Shown here: positions 1-17,897 of the stretch, piece by piece
How positions within the stretch are numbered: the stretch's first letter is position 1
Layout of the letters: each line of letters opens with the position of its first letter
IMG/VR virus record: IMGVR_UViG_3300035665_000001
Span: 1 to 64,000 of that record
Direction: 5' to 3' (one strand)
DNA from: a virus
DNA length: 64,000 nt
Program-made: the position numbers and the translations under genes
The notes under the pieces: model-generated
Told to the model about the DNA's origin: nothing
The model's input: only the letters and a program-made list of their open reading frames with translations
The model's database searches: none

Positions 1-135
1 TGTCCTTGTTGTCCTTGTTGTCCTTGTTGTCCTTGTTGTCCTTGTTGTCCTTGTTGTCCTTGTTGTCCTTGTTGTCCTTGTTGTCCTTGTTGTCCTTGTT
101 GTCCTTGTTGTCCTTGTTGTCCTTGTTGTCCTTGT
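1..135 (-). repeat. 9-bp tandem repeat, 15 units, encoding (Gln-Gly-Gln)n
   Basis: Fifteen perfect copies of the 9-mer TGTCCTTGT fill the first 135 bases and run off the window edge, so the true number is unknown. In the minus-strand reading frame of the flanking gene each unit reads CAA-GGA-CAA, Gln-Gly-Gln. The array therefore codes for a low-complexity QGQ tract, probably a flexible linker. Perfect identity between units suggests recent expansion and likely copy-number variation. Confidence 0.95.
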
Positions 136-1106
136 TTTGGTGGTTCAGCACCTTCACCTGGTTTAGGCATATCATCGCCCATTCCGTCCATCTGATCAGT
201 AACATCTTTTCTATCAGCTGGCGAAAGTTTATTCAATTCTTCAACAACAGCATCATACATATCCATGTAAGTGTTGTATCTGTCATAATTGATATAATCA
301 TTAAACAACCCCATAGGTAATTGAGCATACCCACTTTTAACCAATGTATAGTTGGTAATAAAATCACCAGTATAATTGACTGCATTGCCATCAAGATTAA
401 ATGCTTTCATTAAATAGAAATCACCATTCGCATAATGCATAATTTCATGCAACAATACAAATTCACAATACAAATAGGCATCTGGAATATCACCACCCTG
501 TGATTGATATTTCTTACCATGTTTGAATTTTGGATTAGCTTTTATACCTTTTACAGTAGCAAATTTCATCAAGCTTTCCATAAAAGGTACATAAAATAAC
601 AGATGTGCGTCTGGTGTACAGGCAGCAGTTTTTATACTATCGTATTGTGGTAAAAGTTTATCGGGAGTAAACCATAAAATAGGTTCAATTCTTTTAACCT
701 GAAATGAATTCGACAAAGGATAGAATTCTGGAACTTCATACTTAACAGCGTTGAATACTTTTTGAAAAATTCTTCGATCAAACTTAACATCCGACATAGG
801 TACATCTTTAATAAAATCAAATGCCGTATCTTCATACAAATTATGTATTATGGTTGCGTTTAATAAAGGTGATTTACTAGCAAATTCTAATTTTTCAGCA
901 ACTTTACTTTCCAACATTTCCTGAGCATTAGCTTTGCTAATGCTTTTTGCTTTTGCAAACTCCTCAATAATATGTTGGATATAATCCTCTTTACCAGTAG
1001 TTACAGTAAATTTTGTTTCACCAACAGCATTATATGTATTCGTTAAACCGGCCTCAGTTAAGTATGTTTTAAACATTGAATCGATGTTCTCAAAAAAATC
1101 ATTCAT
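1..1106 (-). CDS. HExxH metallopeptidase-like protein (DUF2201/VWA-associated type), 3' end cut by window
   Basis: Reading from ATG at 1106 the frame is open to the window edge: about 323 ordinary residues and then at least 45 residues of QGQ repeat. Residues 220-224 read HEIMH inside a hydrophobic helix (VLLHEIMHYANGD), the zinc-binding HExxH motif. In cellular genomes a metallopeptidase/VWA-like protein of this type is often paired with a MoxR-family AAA ATPase, and exactly such an ATPase lies directly upstream here (3 bp gap, same strand). The expected VWA-like domain would lie after the QGQ linker, outside the window. The N-terminus contains L16-T17-E18|A19, compatible with a T4-type prohead-protease site. 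The family name is inferred from motif plus neighbour. Confidence 0.6.
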   Translation of the reverse strand, partial: MNDFFENIDSMFKTYLTEAGLTNTYNAVGETKFTVTTGKEDYIQHIIEEFAKAKSISKANAQEMLESKVAEKLEFASKSPLLNATIIHNLYEDTAFDFIKDVPMSDVKFDRRIFQKVFNAVKYEVPEFYPLSNSFQVKRIEPILWFTPDKLLPQYDSIKTAACTPDAHLLFYVPFMESLMKFATVKGIKANPKFKHGKKYQSQGGDIPDAYLYCEFVLLHEIMHYANGDFYLMKAFNLDGNAVNYTGDFITNYTLVKSGYAQLPMGLFNDYINYDRYNTYMDMYDAVVEELNKLSPADRKDVTDQMDGMGDDMPKPGEGAEPPKQGQQGQQGQQGQQGQQGQQGQQGQQGQQGQQGQQGQQGQQGQQG

Positions 1107-1109
1107 AAC

Positions 1110-3140
1110 TTATCCTCGTTTTAATCCAAATTTAACTAAAATTTCTCTGATTTTTGTAGCAGTAGTATCAAGTTCCTCTGTTATTTTTGCATCCATATAA
1201 TCTTCAAGCAAAATAAGCATCAAATTTTGACTAAGTGCTAATTCATCACATGTGGCTTTTAATGATATATACAAATTACTTAAATATTGATTTGTTCGTT
1301 CTGCTTCCTTAACTTTTCCAGCATATGCAGCTTTATCAGTTAGAATATTCAAAATAACATGAATATATTTCAAGTATTTAACATATAATTCACATGTTTT
1401 AGCCTCTAGCATAGGTACATCATTAACTTCACCCGCAGCATTAACAAATTTTGCAGTTCCACTACTTTTTTGATTTTCTACAATTTTATCAGCAACAAAA
1501 TCCGTAATTTCTTGAACAAATTTTTGTGGTGATGTTAAATTTGCAGTTAAATAATTATCAAAATGTGGTGAATCATATAATTGTTCAGGATCATCATAAT
1601 AAGCGTTAAATATTTCACTAATAGTTTTAACCCCTTCTACTTTGCGTGTTTTAATTCCTTCATACATAACTTTTACAGAATCATTATTACGAATAAATCC
1701 ACCCGTAACATCTAAAAAATTATCAGGCGGTACCTGTTGTTTTTTACATGTAAACGTCAATTTATTACTCCAGGCATCATGAAATTCATTAACCATTGCA
1801 TCAATAAATATATCAAAATCTTCATCAGAGTAACTGGTATCCAAATTAAATTTACCAACTTTTCTTTCATCTGAATTATTCAACGCATTAGTTTCCCAAT
1901 CATCATCATCTTCAATTGATTCCTGTGTTGAAGAAAGTGTCGATTCTAAACCAACAACCGTAAGTCTATTAATGATATTAACATTTGTCATACTTACAAT
2001 ATCAGTTATCTCTCTAGGTGACAGGTATACCACGGTTCTTTCATTTCTTAAATTGAATAATTTTTCTTCTTTCTGAATATCATTTCCACGCCAATCAACA
2101 GTTGTAGATTGATAATGGCTTAATACGGTTTTAATAGCACCTACTGTAGCAGTATTACAATCAAACCCCATTTTCAATTCAAGATCTTTTGGTCTTTCAT
2201 TAGATAGCAAATAGGTTTCTAATGATGCCCAAGATGCTCTCGCAGGAATAATATCAACAACATCGCGAGTATGACTTGTTAATTCACCAACACCAGCATC
2301 ATCAGGATTTAATGCACCAGCAACCATGATTTCCACAGGTAAATCAAATTCTTCATTAAAAGATTTTTCCAATAATAATTTTCTAATTGAATTGAATACC
2401 TGAGCATCAGCTCTAGTTAATTCATCTAATAATAATAAAAATTTATATTTTCCTTGACCTTTTTTTCTTTTTTCTTCTGGAATGACTTCCTCATTTTTAA
2501 GTGTTTCCTGCATTTTTTTCTGAATTAAATCAAGTAATTCAGGTTTAGAAAACGATGTAGTCATTACGGGTAAACCATTACTATCTAATTCAGGAGAATT
2601 ATTTGCATCTTTTGCTTGGTTTGCCGTTGGAATTCCAGTAGTTGATTCACGATGTAATGTTGATACATCAATGTGTATAAAATGTAAATCTAAATTATTG
2701 GCAACTTGCATCATATGTGCAGTATTGTGATGAATAAATCCTTGAGCATCCTGATACAAATGTGTATCCGTAGCAATATTTAAATCATATACTAATTCCT
2801 GTGCACCCGTTAATGTTGATTTTGTAATCTTAACAATTGAACCATCTGCCTTCTCTACAGAATCCCCAATATTAAATTCATTTACAAATTTACAATCCTT
2901 TTTATTATAAGCCAATTTATGTTTTTCAGCAGTTTCAACTTTAGTGCCATCATCAAATTCAATAACGTTAATAACATCTTCCTTTGTCATTAGAAAAGGA
3001 ACAGGTTGATAGTGTCCATTTTCATCCTTTAGTTTAATTGCTGATTTCACATAATATTCTTCATCACAGACAAATTCAACACCTTCTAATCTGGCTACAG
3101 CTTCAAATAATTCTGAAATTTCTACTTTTAATTCCATCAT
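1110..3140 (-). CDS. MoxR-type AAA ATPase, C-terminal half, with N-terminal split-intein fragment (IntC)
   Basis: The 676-residue product starts with about 139 residues of intein. They include a block-B-like T-x-x-H (TAEKH, about 70-74), block F (VYDLNIATDTHLY, about 117-129) and a terminal GFIHHN with catalytic Asn139. The extein follows, beginning with Thr140. That extein is the rest of an AAA module whose P-loop GEPGIGK ends the N-extein of the gene at 3413-5032; joining gives GEPGIGKT. Walker B is FLLLLDE (about 234-240) and a sensor-1-like ALNPDD follows. The spliced protein would be about 1047 residues with two AAA modules. RBS AAAGGTG precedes the double ATG and a TATAAATA box lies at 3174-3181, so this half has its own promoter. 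Unspliced, the second AAA module lacks a complete Walker A motif. Confidence 0.85.
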   Translation of the reverse strand: MMELKVEISELFEAVARLEGVEFVCDEEYYVKSAIKLKDENGHYQPVPFLMTKEDVINVIEFDDGTKVETAEKHKLAYNKKDCKFVNEFNIGDSVEKADGSIVKITKSTLTGAQELVYDLNIATDTHLYQDAQGFIHHNTAHMMQVANNLDLHFIHIDVSTLHRESTTGIPTANQAKDANNSPELDSNGLPVMTTSFSKPELLDLIQKKMQETLKNEEVIPEEKRKKGQGKYKFLLLLDELTRADAQVFNSIRKLLLEKSFNEEFDLPVEIMVAGALNPDDAGVGELTSHTRDVVDIIPARASWASLETYLLSNERPKDLELKMGFDCNTATVGAIKTVLSHYQSTTVDWRGNDIQKEEKLFNLRNERTVVYLSPREITDIVSMTNVNIINRLTVVGLESTLSSTQESIEDDDDWETNALNNSDERKVGKFNLDTSYSDEDFDIFIDAMVNEFHDAWSNKLTFTCKKQQVPPDNFLDVTGGFIRNNDSVKVMYEGIKTRKVEGVKTISEIFNAYYDDPEQLYDSPHFDNYLTANLTSPQKFVQEITDFVADKIVENQKSSGTAKFVNAAGEVNDVPMLEAKTCELYVKYLKYIHVILNILTDKAAYAGKVKEAERTNQYLSNLYISLKATCDELALSQNLMLILLEDYMDAKITEELDTTATKIREILVKFGLKRG
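2724..3140 (-). other. Split intein C-terminal fragment (IntC, about 139 aa)
   Basis: The region encodes a T-x-x-H block B, a VYDLNI block F and a terminal His-Asn. The Asn codon lies at 2724-2726 and is followed by a Thr codon at 2721-2723, the +1 nucleophile. There is no room for an endonuclease domain. The fragment is unusually long because the split lies just after block A, as in the atypically split inteins known from phage metagenomes (e.g. the AceL-TerL type). Function is inferred from motif order and from the exact reconstitution of a P-loop. Confidence 0.85.
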
Positions 3141-3173
3141 CTTTTCACCTTTTAATATTTAATATTTAATATT

Positions 3174-3181
3174 TATTTATA
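3174..3181 (-). promoter_or_regulatory. T4-type late promoter box TATAAATA
   Basis: On the minus strand the sequence reads CTATAAATAA, 34 bp upstream of the ATG at 3140. This is a perfect T4 late -10 box. It would let the IntC half be transcribed independently of the IntN half. Confidence 0.6.
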
Positions 3182-3320
3182 GTATTTTTCCATATTTATT
3201 ATCTATTTTTAAAACCTCAGATATGGAAATTGTAAATATACCAATTTTTCATTTGTTATCCCAACATTAAAGCATTTTCAAAGAAAAGTTTCACACAAAT
3301 CTACTACGAATATAGGTTAC

Positions 3321-3353
3321 AAAAAAAATCCCCAGTTTTTCAACCAGGGATTT
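3321..3353 (-). terminator. Rho-independent terminator between the two split-intein genes
   Basis: On the minus strand, AAATCCC and GGGATTT pair (7 bp), with an inner GTT/AAC pairing around a GAAA loop, followed directly by a run of U. It lies 60 bp after the stop codon of the N-terminal ATPase half, so the two halves form separate transcription units. Confidence 0.8.
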
Positions 3354-3412
3354 AAATTTTTGAATAGTGTTGACTTAACTAAACACTCTCACATTGTTGA
3401 TAAAAACACATA

Positions 3413-5032
3413 CTATTTTAATTTTTCAGCTCTAATTTCTAAAATAGTTTTATATAACACCTCATCGATCTCAACTATAATTTCCTGATTACCTCGTAAA
3501 CATTTACCAATACCAGGTTCTCCAGAGATAATGGGTACATATTTTCTAGCCTCTTTAGCCGTTGATTCGGAATCACCATCCATTTTAATTTTAGTAAGTA
3601 ATTGCTGTTCTAATACATCTCGCCATTCGGTTTGTGGATGTGTACTACCATCAAAATCAATTTTAGATGTTTGTTTTATCAAATCAACCATAATTTTTTT
3701 AATTTTTGGATATAAATCTGATACAGCTCCATTTGTGTAATTTTTAAAATTCAATTCCACATTTGTCATCAATATTGATGCTTCTCTAAAATTTGCAACT
3801 GGTAAATTTGCGTTGATATATAACAGTAATTGTTCCCACCGTCTAGGTGAAGATCTAACCTCAACAGATTTATCATCATAACTTAAATCTTCAGCAGTTA
3901 AATTATCATAGAATGTATTAAACACTTGTGGGTTTAATTTGATACTTGGAAATTCCTTCGATATATTTTTTTCATATTTTTTAAGGAAATAATCAAACCA
4001 TTGTTCTTTATCAGGGGATTTAAATTCCATTTCTACGAAATCATTATTCATAGGAATATCTTCAACACCATCGTCACTCAAATTTGATGCATAAACAATG
4101 AAAACTCCAGGTGGAATTTTATCATTACCAATTTGTCCATTCAAAATATTTCTAAGGATGTTTCTGATTTTCATATTATCATTTCTAAAATATTCATCTA
4201 AAAACAATATACAGTTATATGATTCCCTAACATTTGTGATCAAAGCTTTATTGTTTGTATAACCATCTCTAATTGTTCTATCTTTTTTAAGATTAGTAAT
4301 CAGTTCTTCCGTAGTCAATTTTAAAGATTTCATCGATTTTAATTTGGTGACCAAATTTGATTCCGATTGTACGATTTCAAATTTTTGTGAGGTCAAATCA
4401 TTTAAACCACTACTATCTTGTGATGTAGTAACGACTGCAGAATCAGAGGAAATTTTATCACCAACCATAATCATAAATGGAATATTGATAATGTGTTCCT
4501 CAGTAATATGTGGTGCCTCAATAGTTATTAATGGTAAACCTAATAATTTTGAGAACCCACGAATAAAAGAAGTTTTACCCGTTCCTGGATCACCAGTAAG
4601 CATAATAGAATTTTTTACACCCGATGAAGCTGCCTGTCCGTCCATTAACGACAATAATGTAAAAATTTGTTTATTGAACACGTTGTTATTATTTACATTT
4701 GGAGCTTTAAACATCAGTTCCTTAGAACTTAATGCTTTATCAAGTGAACCACCAGCTTTCACCGAACCACCAGATTCATCGGGAATATATTTTTCAACAA
4801 CACTACCATCCAAATTTAAAAATTTTGCAGATTTTGCCGCCTCTACATATTTTTTCAAAGATGCAGTTTTTGTATCTAAATCTTTTTCAAAATCACCAAT
4901 ATTTTCATCTGTAATTTTTTTATCTTTGTGGTTTAACACAGCATTAATCAGAGCATCAAATGTTACATTTGTTCTAGATGTAATCTTATCGGAAAGTTTT
5001 GCTTCCGTAATTAACGAATATGATAATTTCAT
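3413..5032 (-). CDS. MoxR-type AAA ATPase, N-terminal half, with C-terminal split-intein fragment (IntN)
   Basis: The product has 539 residues. A complete first AAA module shows Walker A GDPGTGKT (147-154) and Walker B CILFLDE (about 274-280), with a sensor-like VYASN (about 313-317). A second Walker A begins at GEPGIGK (504-510) and is cut after the Lys by Cys511. The last 29 residues (CLRGNQEIIVEI...) look like intein block A, then stop. The missing Thr and the rest of module 2 are in the gene at 1110-3140. The start ATG has GGGAG upstream and lies 3 bp after the preceding gene. The N-terminus MKLSYSLITE|A has I8-T9-E10|A11, the same spacing as the T4 internal-protein leader MKTYQEFIAE|A, suggesting packaging in the capsid (inference). 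Confidence 0.85.
   Translation of the reverse strand: MKLSYSLITEAKLSDKITSRTNVTFDALINAVLNHKDKKITDENIGDFEKDLDTKTASLKKYVEAAKSAKFLNLDGSVVEKYIPDESGGSVKAGGSLDKALSSKELMFKAPNVNNNNVFNKQIFTLLSLMDGQAASSGVKNSIMLTGDPGTGKTSFIRGFSKLLGLPLITIEAPHITEEHIINIPFMIMVGDKISSDSAVVTTSQDSSGLNDLTSQKFEIVQSESNLVTKLKSMKSLKLTTEELITNLKKDRTIRDGYTNNKALITNVRESYNCILFLDEYFRNDNMKIRNILRNILNGQIGNDKIPPGVFIVYASNLSDDGVEDIPMNNDFVEMEFKSPDKEQWFDYFLKKYEKNISKEFPSIKLNPQVFNTFYDNLTAEDLSYDDKSVEVRSSPRRWEQLLLYINANLPVANFREASILMTNVELNFKNYTNGAVSDLYPKIKKIMVDLIKQTSKIDFDGSTHPQTEWRDVLEQQLLTKIKMDGDSESTAKEARKYVPIISGEPGIGKCLRGNQEIIVEIDEVLYKTILEIRAEKLK
3416..3502 (-). other. Split intein N-terminal fragment (IntN, about 29 aa)
   Basis: The Cys codon at 3500-3502 directly follows the Lys codon of a P-loop. 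The 29 residues to the stop (CLRGNQEIIVEIDEVLYK...) carry the Cys1 nucleophile and the short hydrophobic strand of intein block A, and nothing else. A 29/139 split is the reverse of the usual cyanobacterial DnaE arrangement of about 100/35. Confidence 0.85.
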
Positions 5033-5035
5033 TCT

Positions 5036-5428
5036 CTACTCCCAATTCATAATTTTTTTAAATTCATCTGGTGTATCTACCAGAGTTTTCATCATTTCAG
5101 CATATCTATAAATATATCCAGTTTCAAGATAATTAACACATGGAATAACATATCTTTTTCCCGTATCTGGATCAACGATACCGCCATACATTCCAATGAT
5201 TATTTGAGTTCTGTCTTTACCTGTTGTATCTATTGTAGCCACAGATGCTCGTACTTTTGCTAAATTTTCTTCAGAAATATCAAATTTTGTATCGGTATTA
5301 CTTTGGTTACTAGTTGCAACTCCATAAGATGTTGCAACATCTTCAAAAATCTTATTTGATATTTTATAAGAAGATTTAGTTTGAATTTTAGTGGAAGTTT
5401 GTTTTAACATATCAGCCAACTTACTCAT
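5036..5428 (-). CDS. Hypothetical protein, 130 aa, co-transcribed with the AAA ATPase
   Basis: I do not recognise this protein. It starts MSKLADMLKQTSTKI with a strong AAGGAG eight bases before the ATG and a late-promoter box at 5470-5477. It ends 3 bp before the start of the split ATPase gene, so the two are very probably one transcript. The N-terminal third is Thr/Ser/Lys-rich. The rest (for example IIIGMYGGIVDPDTGKRYVIPCVNYL) looks like a small beta-rich fold. No signal peptide or membrane segment is seen. A partner or adaptor role for the ATPase is possible from position only. Confidence 0.75.
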   Translation of the reverse strand: MSKLADMLKQTSTKIQTKSSYKISNKIFEDVATSYGVATSNQSNTDTKFDISEENLAKVRASVATIDTTGKDRTQIIIGMYGGIVDPDTGKRYVIPCVNYLETGYIYRYAEMMKTLVDTPDEFKKIMNWE

Positions 5429-5469: not shown

Positions 5470-5477
5470 TATTTATA
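5470..5477 (-). promoter_or_regulatory. T4-type late promoter box TATAAATA
   Basis: The minus strand reads GATATAAATATAG, 42 bp upstream of the ATG at 5428. It would drive the gene at 5036-5428 and the IntN-bearing ATPase gene, ending at the terminator at 3321-3353. Confidence 0.65.
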
Positions 5478-13482: not shown

Positions 13483-14307
13483 TTATAAAACATTTTCTAG
13501 ATCTGGTCTTTCCTCTGCAGTGGGTAGAGTGATGTTCAATACAACATATAATACACCATCACTCAAACCCTTCTTAACACGCATTTTTTGACCATGTTTT
13601 GTATTTTGTGGAACTTTAATTTTGAAAACATCACCAAAAAAATTAATTTCTTTTTGCCCACCAAAAATTGCAGTTTTTAAATCAATAGTTTCCATAATAA
13701 AAATATCATTATTTTCAATAGTCATATTGTTTGGTGGTGTTATTTTAATAGTGATGTAAACATTACCAACGCGACCATTCATACTTCTTCCTTTACCTGA
13801 AACCCGCATTTTTGTACCATTCTTGATTCCAGCTGGAATAGTCAATTTTATATTTTCACCATTGATTTCAGTCGTAATATAATCACCATTAACTGCTGTT
13901 TCTAATGGGATAGCAACATCAACATGTATATCTAAATTGGCCTGTGGTCTAGGTGTTTCAAATGGTGAACCGCCACCAAAACTAAATGAACTACCACCAG
14001 CTCCACCACCAAACATATTTCTAAGCATTTCATCAATATCCATACCAGATGATCTATGATATTGATGAAAACCTTGTCCAGTGCCCTTGTTAAACATAGA
14101 ATCGCCACGCATATCATACTGAGATTTTTTCTCAGCATTGCCTAACACTTCATATGCGGCAGCAATTTCTTTAAATTTTTCCTCAGCATCTGGACTTTTA
14201 TTTCTATCGGGGTGATACTTATTCGCTAATTTTCTATAAGATTTTTTTATTTCATCAGCACTTGCATTTTCACTAACACCGAGAATACTATATAAACTTT
14301 TAGCCAT
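13483..14307 (-). CDS. dnaJ: DnaJ/CbpA-type co-chaperone
   Basis: The product has 274 residues. The N-terminal J domain (about 3-66) has the HPDRN motif (about 32-36) needed to stimulate DnaK ATPase, followed by a Gly/Ser/Phe-rich linker (about 85-120). There is no CxxCxGxG zinc finger, so it is a type II (CbpA-like) protein. The C-terminal substrate-binding beta domains ([17 protein letters not shown]..., [15 protein letters not shown]...) are present. It is shorter than cellular CbpA (about 305). RBS AAGGAA. It is the last gene of the chaperone cluster, 2 bp after grpE, and should deliver substrates to the phage or host DnaK. Confidence 0.93.
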
Positions 14308-14834: not shown

Positions 14835-16124
14835 TTAGTGTTCAATTTCCGCCTCAAGAAAATCATCATCTGGCATAGATGCTGAATAGGTTTGATTATC
14901 CTGATTTTGCGATGCCTCATGCAACTTCGTACCAATTTCCTGGAACTTATTCATCAAAGTTTCATGAATTTTTTTAAGATCGGAAACAGTTGATGTTTCG
15001 TTACCTACCAATTCCTTTGCAGAATCAATAACAGATTTTAATTCGGCTGTATCTAAGGCTTCATTTTCCTTAATAAACTTTTCTGCCTGATTAATCGTAC
15101 CATCAATTGAGTTTGTAATACTAATTTTTTCAAGCTTATCTTTATTTCGAATGTTTGATTCCTCCGCATCTGCAACCATTTTAGAAATTTCATCATCAGT
15201 TAACGTACCACTACCAGTAATAGTGATTGAATTAGCTTTCCCCGTAGATAAATCTTTTGCAGAAACAGAAAGAATACCATTGGTATCAATATCCATCTTA
15301 ATTTCAATTTGAGGAACACCTCGTGGTGCAGGAGCAATTCCACCCAATTCAAATGTTCCTAACTGCTTATTATCAGAAAATAACTGTGCCTCTCCAGTAG
15401 CAATCATGACAGATACCGCAGGTTGGTTATCAGCCGCCGTTGAAAACACCTGTTTTGCAGATGTAGGAATAGTTGTACCTTTTTCAACCAGTTTAGTCAT
15501 CACACCACCCATAGTTTCAATTCCTAAAGATAATGGTGTGACGTCCAATAAAACAATATCATCAACATCACCTGCTAATACACCTCCTTGAATAGCAGCA
15601 CCTGCAGCAACCACTTCATCGGGGTTGACAGTATTATTCAAGATTTTACCATTAAAAAACTCAGAAACTTTTGTTTTTACTAATGGAATACGAGTTGAAC
15701 CACCAACCATTACAACTTCCTGGATTTTTGATTTATCTAACCCAGCCTGTTTCAAAGCATCTTTGATATGGGTGAGAATTTCATCAACCATTGGTTCAAT
15801 CATAGAATCTAATTTAGCTCTAGTCACTTTCGAAATCAAATGTTTTGGACCTGAAGCATCAGCAGTAATGTATGGTAAATTAATTTCAGTTTCCATAGTT
15901 GCAGAAAGTTCTTTTTTTGCTTTTTCAGCAGAATCCATTAAACGTTGCATAGCAAGTGCATCATTAGATAAATCCATACCAGTATCAGATTTAAATTGAG
16001 AAATTAAGTATCCCATAATCGCCTGGTCTACGTCCTTACCACCCATAAAAGCATTACCATCGGTTGATAAAACTTCAAATGTTCCTTCTTCACCAACATC
16101 AATAACTGAAATATCTAATGTTCC
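14835..16124 (-). CDS. dnaK: DnaK (Hsp70) exon 2
   Basis: This is the second exon of dnaK, 429 codons from GGA-ACA-TTA-GAT-ATT. Joining it to exon 1 (16458-17048) restores the ATPase phosphate-2 motif DFGGGTLDIS. It carries the rest of the nucleotide-binding domain (VMVGGSTRIPLVK; NPDEVVAAGAAIQGGVL), the conserved linker (VLLDVTPLSLGIET) and the peptide-binding beta domain with its helical lid, ending in an acidic tail (MPDDDFLEAEIEH) like DnaK's EEVKD-type end. The spliced protein is 626 residues, close to E. coli DnaK (638). A continuous frame starts at an intron Met (16157), but that product would be a fragment without the N-terminal lobe. Confidence 0.93.
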   Translation of the reverse strand, partial: GTLDISVIDVGEEGTFEVLSTDGNAFMGGKDVDQAIMGYLISQFKSDTGMDLSNDALAMQRLMDSAEKAKKELSATMETEINLPYITADASGPKHLISKVTRAKLDSMIEPMVDEILTHIKDALKQAGLDKSKIQEVVMVGGSTRIPLVKTKVSEFFNGKILNNTVNPDEVVAAGAAIQGGVLAGDVDDIVLLDVTPLSLGIETMGGVMTKLVEKGTTIPTSAKQVFSTAADNQPAVSVMIATGEAQLFSDNKQLGTFELGGIAPAPRGVPQIEIKMDIDTNGILSVSAKDLSTGKANSITITGSGTLTDDEISKMVADAEESNIRNKDKLEKISITNSIDGTINQAEKFIKENEALDTAELKSVIDSAKELVGNETSTVSDLKKIHETLMNKFQEIGTKLHEASQNQDNQTYSASMPDDDFLEAEIEH

Positions 16125-16457
16125 CGATTTGTTATCGTAGGGGAATTTAACCCCCACTTCTAATAGTTTCCTATTAGTCCAGACTATATCTTAGTTTGTT
16201 AATTTTCAAACCTTCCGCACTCTTGGAGTTTTACCTTCTTCAGCATTATCTGGTCAGAATCCATACTCTAGTCGTTGAACCTTGAACTTATTTCTAAGTC
16301 CCTTGGCTGCTGATTTTCCAATCTTAACCCTTTTCAAACCATTATCCCTATCTTCACAGATTTGATTGTGGTGTGTTAAGCTCTAAGGACGTCCCAGCAA
16401 TTCACGGAATTTTTTTAAACTGGAGGCTTGTTATGCTGCTACTGCAGCCAATAGTTC
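16125..16457 (-). ncRNA. Group I self-splicing intron in dnaK (333 nt, no ORF)
   Basis: The minus strand shows the conserved core in order: a P-like element (GAATTGCTGGGACG), Q (AATCAGCAGCCAAG), R (GTTCAACGACTAGA, 16267-16280) and S (AAGATATAGTCT, 16181-16192), with P7 pairing GACTA/TAGTC. A P9 hairpin CTAATAG-GAAA-CTATTAG follows at 16160-16177. The 5' exon ends in T (16458), which can form the P1 U-G pair with the guide GCCTCCA (16421-16427); the intron ends in G (16125). Excision joins ...GGT-GGT to GGA-ACA in frame and restores DFGGGTLDIS. This is a subclass IA2-like, T4-td-like intron by its R and S sequences. Confidence 0.93.
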
Positions 16458-17048
16458 ACCACCAAAATCCACAACACAAATGGTTTCATCTTTTTTCTTA
16501 TCAATACCATACGCTAATGCTGCTGCAGTAGGTTCGTTAATAATACGTAACACATTAAGACCGGCAATTTTACCAGCATCCTGTGTTGCTTTACGTTGTG
16601 AATCATTAAAGTAAGCAGGAACAGTAATAACTGCATCAGTAACAGTTGTACCTAAATATGCCTCAGCATCCACTTTTAATTTTGAAAGAATCTTAGCAGA
16701 AATCTCTTGAGGCGTGTAAGTCTTACCATCAATCTCAACAGCGGCAGCACCATTTCTATCTACAATGTTGTATTGTACTTTAGTTTTTGCTTCCTCAGTT
16801 TTTTTCTCATTACTCATTAAACCCATAATACGTTTAACAGCTTCAATTGTTTTATGGGGGTTTGTTACTGCCTGACGTTTTGCAGACTCACCAACCAAAA
16901 CTTCATCACCTGCAAAAGCCACAATTGATGGAGTAGTATTATTACCCTCACGATTTGGGATAATTTTTGACGTTCCATTTTCATAAATGGAAATACAACT
17001 ATTAGTGGTTCCTAAATCTAAACCAAGCACAATTTGTTTTTTACTCAT
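16458..17048 (-). CDS. dnaK: DnaK (Hsp70) exon 1
   Basis: The first 197 codons of dnaK: the phosphate-1 motif [17 protein letters not shown] (about 9-25), [33 protein letters not shown] and [12 protein letters not shown] are all intact, ending at VVDFGG. Without splicing, translation adds eight intron-coded residues and stops at 16431, giving a useless half ATPase domain. RBS GAGGAAA precedes the ATG. Joined with exon 2 (14835-16124) it gives a 626-residue Hsp70. The upstream neighbour is an HNH endonuclease 26 bp away, and grpE and dnaJ follow. Confidence 0.95.
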
Positions 17049-17074: not shown

Positions 17075-17815
17075 TTAATTAATGTATTTTTTTTCAATAA
17101 TTGGTTTGAAAAATTGTATCCAACTTTCTCTATTCCAATTGGTTTTCGAATGACAGCTATTACATAACACTATCAAATTTTTTTCATCTGAGTTTTGTTT
17201 ATTATAATCTATATGATGAATGTGTAGTTTTGATGTAATTTCAAAACGGTTACACAGTTGGCATTGTAAATTATCACGAACCTTTATCAGATATTTCTTT
17301 TGCTTATTAAAGCCTACATCGTATTCACCAAAACTTAAACCACCTTGCCAATTATGATGATATTGTAGTTTTGGTGTATTCTGGTTTTGTTTTAAAAACC
17401 CAGTATCATCATAAGATCTTTTACCTTTCCTTGAATCAGAAGCCCATTGCTTATATTCATCGGTATGTTCTTTACCAAAAAAAGGATTTTTTTCACCAAT
17501 TCTCGGATTATCTTTCAAATACATTTTCAATGAATTTGAAATTTTACTCGATACCATAGGATCACATGATGGATTGTTTTTTCCAGAAAAACGGTCTGAC
17601 ATAGTTTTTCTTAATTCAGCAGCTCTATCACGTCCAATTCGATCTTCCCAACTGATTGTTTTTTGCCAATTAATTTGACATTTTTTAGAACAATATCGCC
17701 TTTTTTCAGATCCAACCCTTAATAATCCTTTTCGTGGTCCAGTTTTAACAATTTTTAATTGTATCACCACACCACAAAATTCACAGTTTTTAATATCAAA
17801 TAATTTATGGTCCAT
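17075..17815 (-). CDS. Free-standing HNH homing endonuclease, NUMOD3-type
   Basis: The start is taken at ATG 17815 (MDHKLFDIKNCEFCG...), which has AGGA ten bases upstream; the frame extends to 17872. The N-terminus has a zinc-ribbon-like segment (CEFCG ... YCSKKC). Next are NUMOD3-like DNA-binding motifs (about 80-140: SGKNNPSCDPMVS, GEKNPFFGKEHTDEYKQW, SRKGKRS). A C-terminal HNH nuclease follows (CQLCNRFEITSKLHIHHIDYNKQN...NLIVLCNSCHSKTN). Such enzymes cut a related allele so that recombination copies in the gene or a linked intron. It sits 26 bp upstream of the intron-containing dnaK and may mobilise that ORF-less intron. A hairpin next to its RBS may restrain its translation. Confidence 0.9.
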   Translation of the reverse strand: MDHKLFDIKNCEFCGVVIQLKIVKTGPRKGLLRVGSEKRRYCSKKCQINWQKTISWEDRIGRDRAAELRKTMSDRFSGKNNPSCDPMVSSKISNSLKMYLKDNPRIGEKNPFFGKEHTDEYKQWASDSRKGKRSYDDTGFLKQNQNTPKLQYHHNWQGGLSFGEYDVGFNKQKKYLIKVRDNLQCQLCNRFEITSKLHIHHIDYNKQNSDEKNLIVLCNSCHSKTNWNRESWIQFFKPIIEKKYIN

Positions 17816-17829
17816 ATAACATTTCCTAA

Positions 17830-17849
17830 AATGTATATTACTATACATT
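17830..17849 (-). promoter_or_regulatory. Hairpin next to the RBS of the HNH gene
   Basis: AATGTATA-GTAA-TATACATT is a perfect 8-bp stem with a 4-nt loop. It ends about 2 nt before the AGGAAA Shine-Dalgarno of the HNH gene start at 17815. A hairpin in this place could hinder ribosome access, as known for T4 intron and seg endonucleases. Confidence 0.5.
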
Positions 17850-17897
17850 ATTTTAATGAACATATGATCCATTTATACCACTGTTTTTAATATCCAG

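What the first reader, a model, noticed from the sequence alone, without database searches (positions are those of the whole stretch)
1110..5032. Atypical split intein cutting the Walker A motif of a double-AAA MoxR-type ATPase
Gene 3413-5032 ends GEPGIGK followed by CLRGNQEIIVEI... and stop. Gene 1110-3140 starts with about 139 intein-like residues ending GFIHHN followed by Thr. Joining gives GEPGIGKT, a perfect P-loop, and one protein of about 1047 residues with two AAA modules. The split is about 29/139, the rare arrangement with a very short IntN. Activity of module 2 would depend strictly on trans-splicing, a possible switch. The host protein, a MoxR-type ATPase in a phage, is one I do not recall for any described split intein.
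Basis: partly seen in the sequence, partly recalled or inferred. Interest (0 to 1): 0.9.

Follow-up and report, generated by a model that had tools for sequence, protein, structure and literature searches.

The report
Split intein inside phage MoxR-type ATPase
A large phage makes one of its ATPase chaperones as two separate proteins, each carrying part of a self-removing 'intein' that almost certainly stitches them together exactly through the ATP-binding loop; it is a solid new example of a known trick, in a phage that uses the trick repeatedly.

Summary
On the minus strand, gene 5032-3413 ends GEPGIGK|C plus 28 residues (29-aa IntN). Gene 3140-1110 begins with a 139-aa IntC ending HHN|T. Joining the exteins gives GEPGIGKT in a 1047-aa, 118-kDa protein with two AAA modules. 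The strongest evidence was new. Three related viral contigs carry the same gene uninterrupted: 59-60% identical across the whole joined sequence, GEPGIGKTAHM invariant at the junction, same gene neighbourhood. All 16 homologues found in viral contigs lack the insertion. The IntC scores 40 bits against a profile of this phage's other inteins (best of 2000 shuffles 11.8) and keeps the catalytic His, Asp, His and Asn. The 272-nt gap holds a terminator, a late-type promoter word and a ribosome-binding site, so two genes are transcribed separately. This phage has nine other split-intein C-halves (NrdA, UvsX, TerL, topoisomerase, one unidentified). New member of a known kind. Splicing itself remains inferred.

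The parts
3503..5032 (-). N-extein: residues 1-510, AAA module 1 and the start of AAA module 2 up to GEPGIGK
3413..3502 (-). IntN (Cys511-Lys539, CLRGNQEIIVEIDEVLYKTILEIRAEKLK) and stop
   Evidence: position fixed by empty-site orthologues
3326..3353 (-). Terminator-like hairpin plus T-run after the N-gene
   Evidence: 12 pairs, then TTTTT; consensus match only
3174..3181 (-). TATAAATA (T4-type late promoter word) 33 nt upstream of the C-gene start; AGGTG ribosome-binding site next to the ATG
   Evidence: 9 of 17 such words lie 23-62 nt upstream of a start, the highest of 56 same-composition words (mean 12%)
2724..3140 (-). IntC, 139 aa: block B His74, block F Asp119/His127, block G His138-Asn139, followed by Thr+1
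   Evidence: (PF14890 match 2724-3134)
1110..2723 (-). C-extein: rest of AAA module 2 (from Walker A Thr) and C-terminal region
1..1106 (-). Putative metallopeptidase partner gene (HEIMH motif), cut by the contig end
   Evidence: (57% identical, E 2e-131, to the DUF2201 protein of relative L082)
5036..5428 (-). Small conserved gene in front of the ATPase; same place in intact relatives
   Evidence: (37-44% identical, E 3e-28 and 3e-38)
5470..5477 (-). TATAAATA 41 nt upstream of the operon of small gene plus N-half

Best explanation
A phage double-AAA MoxR-type ATPase gene was invaded, at its second Walker A motif between Lys and Thr, by a class 1 mini-intein. The intein was later broken near its N-terminus into two separately transcribed genes. 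Both halves are made late in infection. The 29-residue IntN docks on the 139-residue IntC. Cys1, the block B and block F His/Asp residues, and the penultimate His with terminal Asn carry out standard class 1 splicing, with Thr+1 as acceptor. This gives the 1047-residue ATPase with a complete second P-loop. The ATPase then works with the metallopeptidase encoded next to it, probably as a MoxR-type chaperone pair in virion assembly. Shown: gene structure, motifs, empty-site orthologues, conserved neighbourhood. Inferred: docking, splicing, timing and function.
For: Exact joint GK|T and intein motifs. Uninterrupted orthologues at 59-60% identity over the full joined length, with an identical sequence at the junction; 16 of 16 homologues in viral contigs lack an insertion there. 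Intein profile score 39-40 bits against at most 11.8 in 2000 shuffles; PF14890 improves from 0.068 (C-gene) to 8.8e-5 (joined intein) and finds the IntC in a genome scan. His74, Asp119, His127 and Asn139 are invariant against other inteins of this phage. The best PDB fold matches of the IntC model are inteins. Separate terminator and promoter word. The same phage holds complete split pairs whose exteins tile NrdA (profile 1-212, 204-389, 390-523) and TerL (398-522, 522-641). Neighbouring metallopeptidase gene, as in the MoxR-vWA pairs of jumbo phages (PMC7824862).
Against: No activity data. The IntN has no profile score of its own. The block B Thr is Ala here (also Ala in this phage's TerL C-half at 169358-170110). 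The IntC model is weak (mean pLDDT 62, TM about 0.35) and the joined intein could not be folded here. No second copy of the split gene was found to show that the halves are conserved as a pair.
Confidence: 0.92

Rival explanations
1. The intein is dead: the halves stay separate or associate without ligation, and only module 1 hydrolyses ATP.
For: No experiment; block B Thr is Ala; IntN alone scores nothing.
Against: All catalytic residues of a class 1 intein are kept. The C-half keeps Walker B and sensor residues, which makes sense only if the P-loop is restored. A 60%-identical, otherwise intact reading frame argues for continued use. The phage keeps many other split inteins in core genes.
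Confidence: 0.05
2. The 272-nt gap is removed at RNA level (intron or trans-splicing), giving a contiguous intein that splices in cis.
For: The phage does have a group I intron, in dnaK.
Against: No intron family match in 2500-3900 even at E up to 5, whereas the dnaK intron is found at 1e-15 in a scan of the same kind. The gap carries a terminator, a promoter word and a ribosome-binding site, and the two frames differ.
Confidence: 0.02
3. Assembly artefact: the break is a misassembly of an intact or contiguous-intein gene.
For: Metagenomic contig, and only one copy of the locus was seen.
Against: Clean start, ribosome-binding site, promoter word and terminator at the break; conserved neighbours on both sides; many other split inteins in the same record, five C-terminal matches of which recur at one constant offset in a second contig.
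Confidence: 0.02
4. The split is a regulatory switch: module 2 is held inactive until splicing is triggered.
For: The C-half cannot bind ATP at module 2 before splicing; a P-loop intein in DnaB shows conditional splicing (PMC6195587).
Against: Both units have the same late-type promoter word; no sensor domain was seen; the other split genes of this phage are core enzymes, which fits tolerated parasites.
Confidence: 0.07

Closest known systems
AceL-TerL, GOS-TerL and engineered Cat-TerL atypical split inteins (PMC11766414)
   Same: Class 1 split inteins with IntN of 25-37 aa and IntC of 104-115 aa; the two natural ones come from TerL genes in metagenomes
   Different: Here 29/139, host is a MoxR-type ATPase, +1 residue is Thr rather than Cys
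PolB16 OarG split intein (PMC10189870)
   Same: Naturally very short IntN (15 aa) and long IntC (168 aa), metagenomic
   Different: Ser1/Ser+1 and PolB host; here Cys1/Thr+1
TerL1-a P-loop inteins of mycobacteriophages (PMC5050341)
   Different: Different host protein; the present one is split and has no nuclease
Short-IntN splits at GEPGxGK|T in Clp-like and other P-loop ATPases of IMG/VR phages (found here)
   Same: Same Lys|Thr site, IntN 27-42 aa, IntC 117-144 aa where seen, ends HN|T
   Different: Hosts are mostly Clp/HSP100-like; their IntN sequences resemble one another, ours differs
Split PolB intein of Pseudomonas jumbo phage MIJ3 (PMC6892783)
   Same: Split intein in a jumbo phage
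   Different: Block B lies in the N-half (canonical split), HNH endonuclease gene between the halves, PolB host

Membership tests
Class 1 intein | Nucleophile Cys/Ser at position 1 directly after the N-extein | tested here: met
   Cys511 after GEPGIGK
Class 1 intein | Block B catalytic His | tested here: met
   His74 invariant in alignment A2; the usual Thr of the block is Ala, as in this phage's TerL C-half
Class 1 intein | Block F Asp/His and block G His-Asn, then Cys/Ser/Thr at +1 | tested here: met
   Asp119, His127, His138-Asn139, Thr140
Class 1 intein | Sequence homology to inteins | tested here: met
   40 bits vs at most 11.8 in shuffles; PF14890 E=8.8e-5, below its curated cut-off
Class 1 intein | HINT fold of the assembled halves | tested here: inconclusive
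   IntC alone folded: pLDDT 62; the 13 best PDB hits are all intein or intein-like but E only 4e-3 or worse and TM about 0.35; the joined chain could not be folded here
Class 1 intein | Excision with ligation of exteins | not testable with these tools
   Needs expression
Natural atypical split intein | Two separate genes, short IntN (under about 40 aa), IntC containing block B | tested here: met
   29/139, separate starts, terminator and promoter word between
Fractured gene with homing endonuclease between the halves | Nuclease ORF in the gap | tested here: not met
   Gap is 272 nt without such an ORF
MoxR AAA+ ATPase | AAA module related to MoxR proteins | tested here: met
   phrog_1297 76 bits for the joined module; alignment with annotated phage MoxR ATPases
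MoxR AAA+ ATPase | Paired with a vWA / metallopeptidase gene | tested here: met
   DUF2201 protein next to intact relatives and its 57% identical orthologue at 12-1100; the vWA part of ours, if any, is cut off by the contig end
MoxR AAA+ ATPase | MoxR clade-specific structural inserts | not tested
   No structure of the AAA modules was predicted

The most novel reading that the evidence does not exclude
This phage makes its packaging motor, recombinase, ribonucleotide reductase, topoisomerase and assembly chaperone from pieces by running about ten split inteins at once in the same cell, several of them atypical and several in P-loops; these must be mutually orthogonal, and the MoxR split is one part of that obligatory protein-stitching programme.
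Probability: 0.4. Interest if true: 0.75.

Novelty: new member of a known kind. Interest (0 to 1): 0.52.

Why it matters
It adds a natural short-IntN split intein (29/139, Cys1/Thr+1) with a very well-defined insertion site, in a host protein for which I found no described intein. Such short-IntN inteins are useful for chemical protein labelling. The related intact genes give a ready control for the effect of the intein. The surroundings matter more: one phage genome with at least six complete split pairs and four more C-halves lets one ask how many split inteins can work side by side without cross-reaction, and whether Walker A motifs of AAA+ chaperones are a hotspot for atypical splitting.

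Tried and rejected
Searches with the single halves found no relative in phage records or in viral contigs, nor did a stretch of the joined module; relatives appeared only after fetching this phage's portal protein, finding its relatives, and searching those records with the joined ATPase. A first family alignment was too diverse to search with. PDB sequence searches gave nothing useful: ankyrin chance matches for the IntC, general AAA+ for the ATPase. The idea that the gap is a group I intron was rejected. A query with the IntC alone found no relative.

Full report
Observation. The two genes lie on the minus strand, 5032-3413 and 3140-1110. The first ends ...ARKYVPIISGEPGIGK-CLRGNQEIIVEIDEVLYKTILEIRAEKLK-stop. 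The second starts with 139 residues ending LVYDLNIATDTHLYQDAQGFIHHN, then TAHMMQVANNLDL....

Is the join real? Four tests say so. First, AAA module 1 aligns with the joined module 2 through the junction (24% identity, E=2e-9 in a two-sequence comparison). Second, the joined module scores 76 bits against phrog_1297 (ATPase), against 47 for the C-gene alone, and passes the Pfam AAA cut-off that the C-gene does not reach. Third and strongest, three related viral contigs encode the protein without any interruption: residues 2/3-1045 of the joined sequence match at 59-60% identity with no stop, and GEPGIGKTAHM is identical in all. Fourth, a family search found 16 contigs with the double-AAA protein; none has an insertion at this Lys|Thr. 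The site is therefore an empty site in the relatives.

Is it an intein? A profile built from eight other inteins of the same phage gives the candidate 39-40 bits; the best of 2000 shuffles of the candidate gives 11.8. Aligned with five of those inteins, the invariant residues are His74 (block B), Asp119 and His127 (block F) and Asn139 (block G), the known catalytic positions. The block B Thr is Ala, as it is in the TerL C-half at 169358-170110 of the same phage. Pfam's intein model rises from E=0.068 with the C-gene to 8.8e-5 with the joined intein, still below its curated cut-off; in a genome scan it marks 2724-3134. The AlphaFold model of the IntC alone is weak (pLDDT 62); its 13 best PDB matches are all inteins or intein-like domains, with poor E-values (4e-3 and worse) and TM-scores near 0.35. 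That is weak support.

Why split, not contiguous. The 272-nt gap changes frame and contains a terminator hairpin with a T-run (3353-3326), a TATAAATA word 33 nt before the second start, and an AGGTG ribosome-binding site. TATAAATA is the T4 late-promoter core (my knowledge). Its total count in this window is what chance gives (17 against 16 expected), but 9 of the 17 copies lie 23-62 nt before a gene start, the highest of 56 same-composition words, whose mean is 12%. A second copy precedes the operon of the N-half (5470). Both halves thus look like late genes with their own transcripts. No intron family matches the region.

The host protein. The gene sits in a conserved neighbourhood: a small 122-130-aa gene ends a few bases before it, and a protein with a DUF2201 putative metallopeptidase domain follows in a close relative and in more distant ones. 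In the window the orthologue of that protein (57% identical, HEIMH motif) begins right after the C-gene and is cut by the contig end. MoxR-like ATPases of N4-like phages are likewise followed by a putative metallopeptidase, and a MoxR plus metallopeptidase-vWA pair in jumbo phages has been proposed to act in virion assembly (PMC7824862). MoxR-type is therefore a fair label and virion assembly the best guess; the latter is inference.

The surroundings. The 306-kb record holds nine other intein C-terminal matches, all of which lead an open frame of their own. Reading the stretches shows NrdA in three genes joined by two canonical split inteins; their exteins tile the Pfam barrel domain 1-212, 204-389, 390-523. 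TerL pieces are consecutive on phrog_36964 at 398-522 and 522-641; three TerL C-halves imply four pieces, of which the first was not located. The two visible TerL IntN halves have 33 and about 46 residues. UvsX has two C-halves, one of them again inside the P-loop. A topoisomerase large subunit and one further gene start with an IntC. Both halves were seen for six split inteins (MoxR, NrdA twice, TerL twice, UvsX once); for four only the C-half. The portal protein carries two contiguous inteins. Relatives also carry inteins but fewer matches: four in a 290-kb relative, five in Salicola phage SCTP-2, one in MIJ3.

How unusual. Insertion between Walker A Lys and Thr is described as the classic P-loop site (PMC5050341). 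Natural short-IntN splits are described at 25/104, 37/115 and 15/168 (PMC11766414; PMC10189870). A degenerate scan for GEPGxGK followed by Cys in IMG/VR returned 18 stretches: 15 show a P-loop ATPase ending in a 27-42-residue IntN-like tail (13 distinct sequences), and in 13 of the 15 a matching IntC of 117-144 residues ending HN|T with the rest of the ATPase follows within about 2 kb. Most are Clp/HSP100-like by eye. So the present case is a new host for a recurrent arrangement. I found no paper describing an intein in a MoxR protein, but the library covers open-access papers only.

Limits. Splicing is not shown. The IntN is too short to score by itself. Only one copy of the split locus was seen; near-identical records may be hidden from the searches.

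Noticed in passing
window 14835-17048 (-): Phage-encoded dnaK (HSP70) interrupted by a group I intron (RF00028, 16160-16489, E 1e-15), with an HNH-like ORF at 17075-17872 next to it and a DnaJ gene at 13483-14307. The default whole-window Rfam search missed the intron.
   Followed up: partly
G000 106996-110468 (L016): NrdA is encoded in three consecutive genes joined by two canonical split inteins; the exteins tile the Pfam barrel domain without gaps.
   Followed up: partly
G000 169358-170110 (-), 230010-230798 (+), 200201-201511 (-) (L017, L019, L018): Terminase large subunit scattered over distant loci on both strands as pieces with short-IntN split inteins; three C-halves imply four pieces, the first not located.
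   Followed up: partly
G000 241522-244614 (L019): UvsX recombinase in pieces with two split inteins, the first inside its P-loop (N|SGKS) and with an unusually long (about 190 aa) IntC; similar regions occur in MIJ3-like phages and SCTP-2.
   Followed up: partly
G000 63460-66627 (L015): Portal protein with two contiguous inteins, the second with an HNH-like insertion; several relatives in IMG/VR have shorter matching spans, consistent with lacking one or both.
   Followed up: partly
L091-L097, L100-L106, L108: 15 viral contigs with short-IntN split inteins at GEPGxGK|T of Clp/HSP100-like and another P-loop ATPase, found by one degenerate DNA pattern.
   Followed up: partly
L098 4887-4910 (+): A long intein-like stretch directly after GEPGVGK in one continuous ATPase frame.
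   Followed up: no
window 1-320: Contig end lies in a GQQ-coding simple repeat inside the metallopeptidase gene, probably why the contig ends there.
   Followed up: no
G000 117459-118697 (L016) and 159019-159603 (L017): IntC-led C-halves of topoisomerase II large subunit and of a gene without a family match (looks DnaB-helicase-like by eye); N-halves not located.
   Followed up: no
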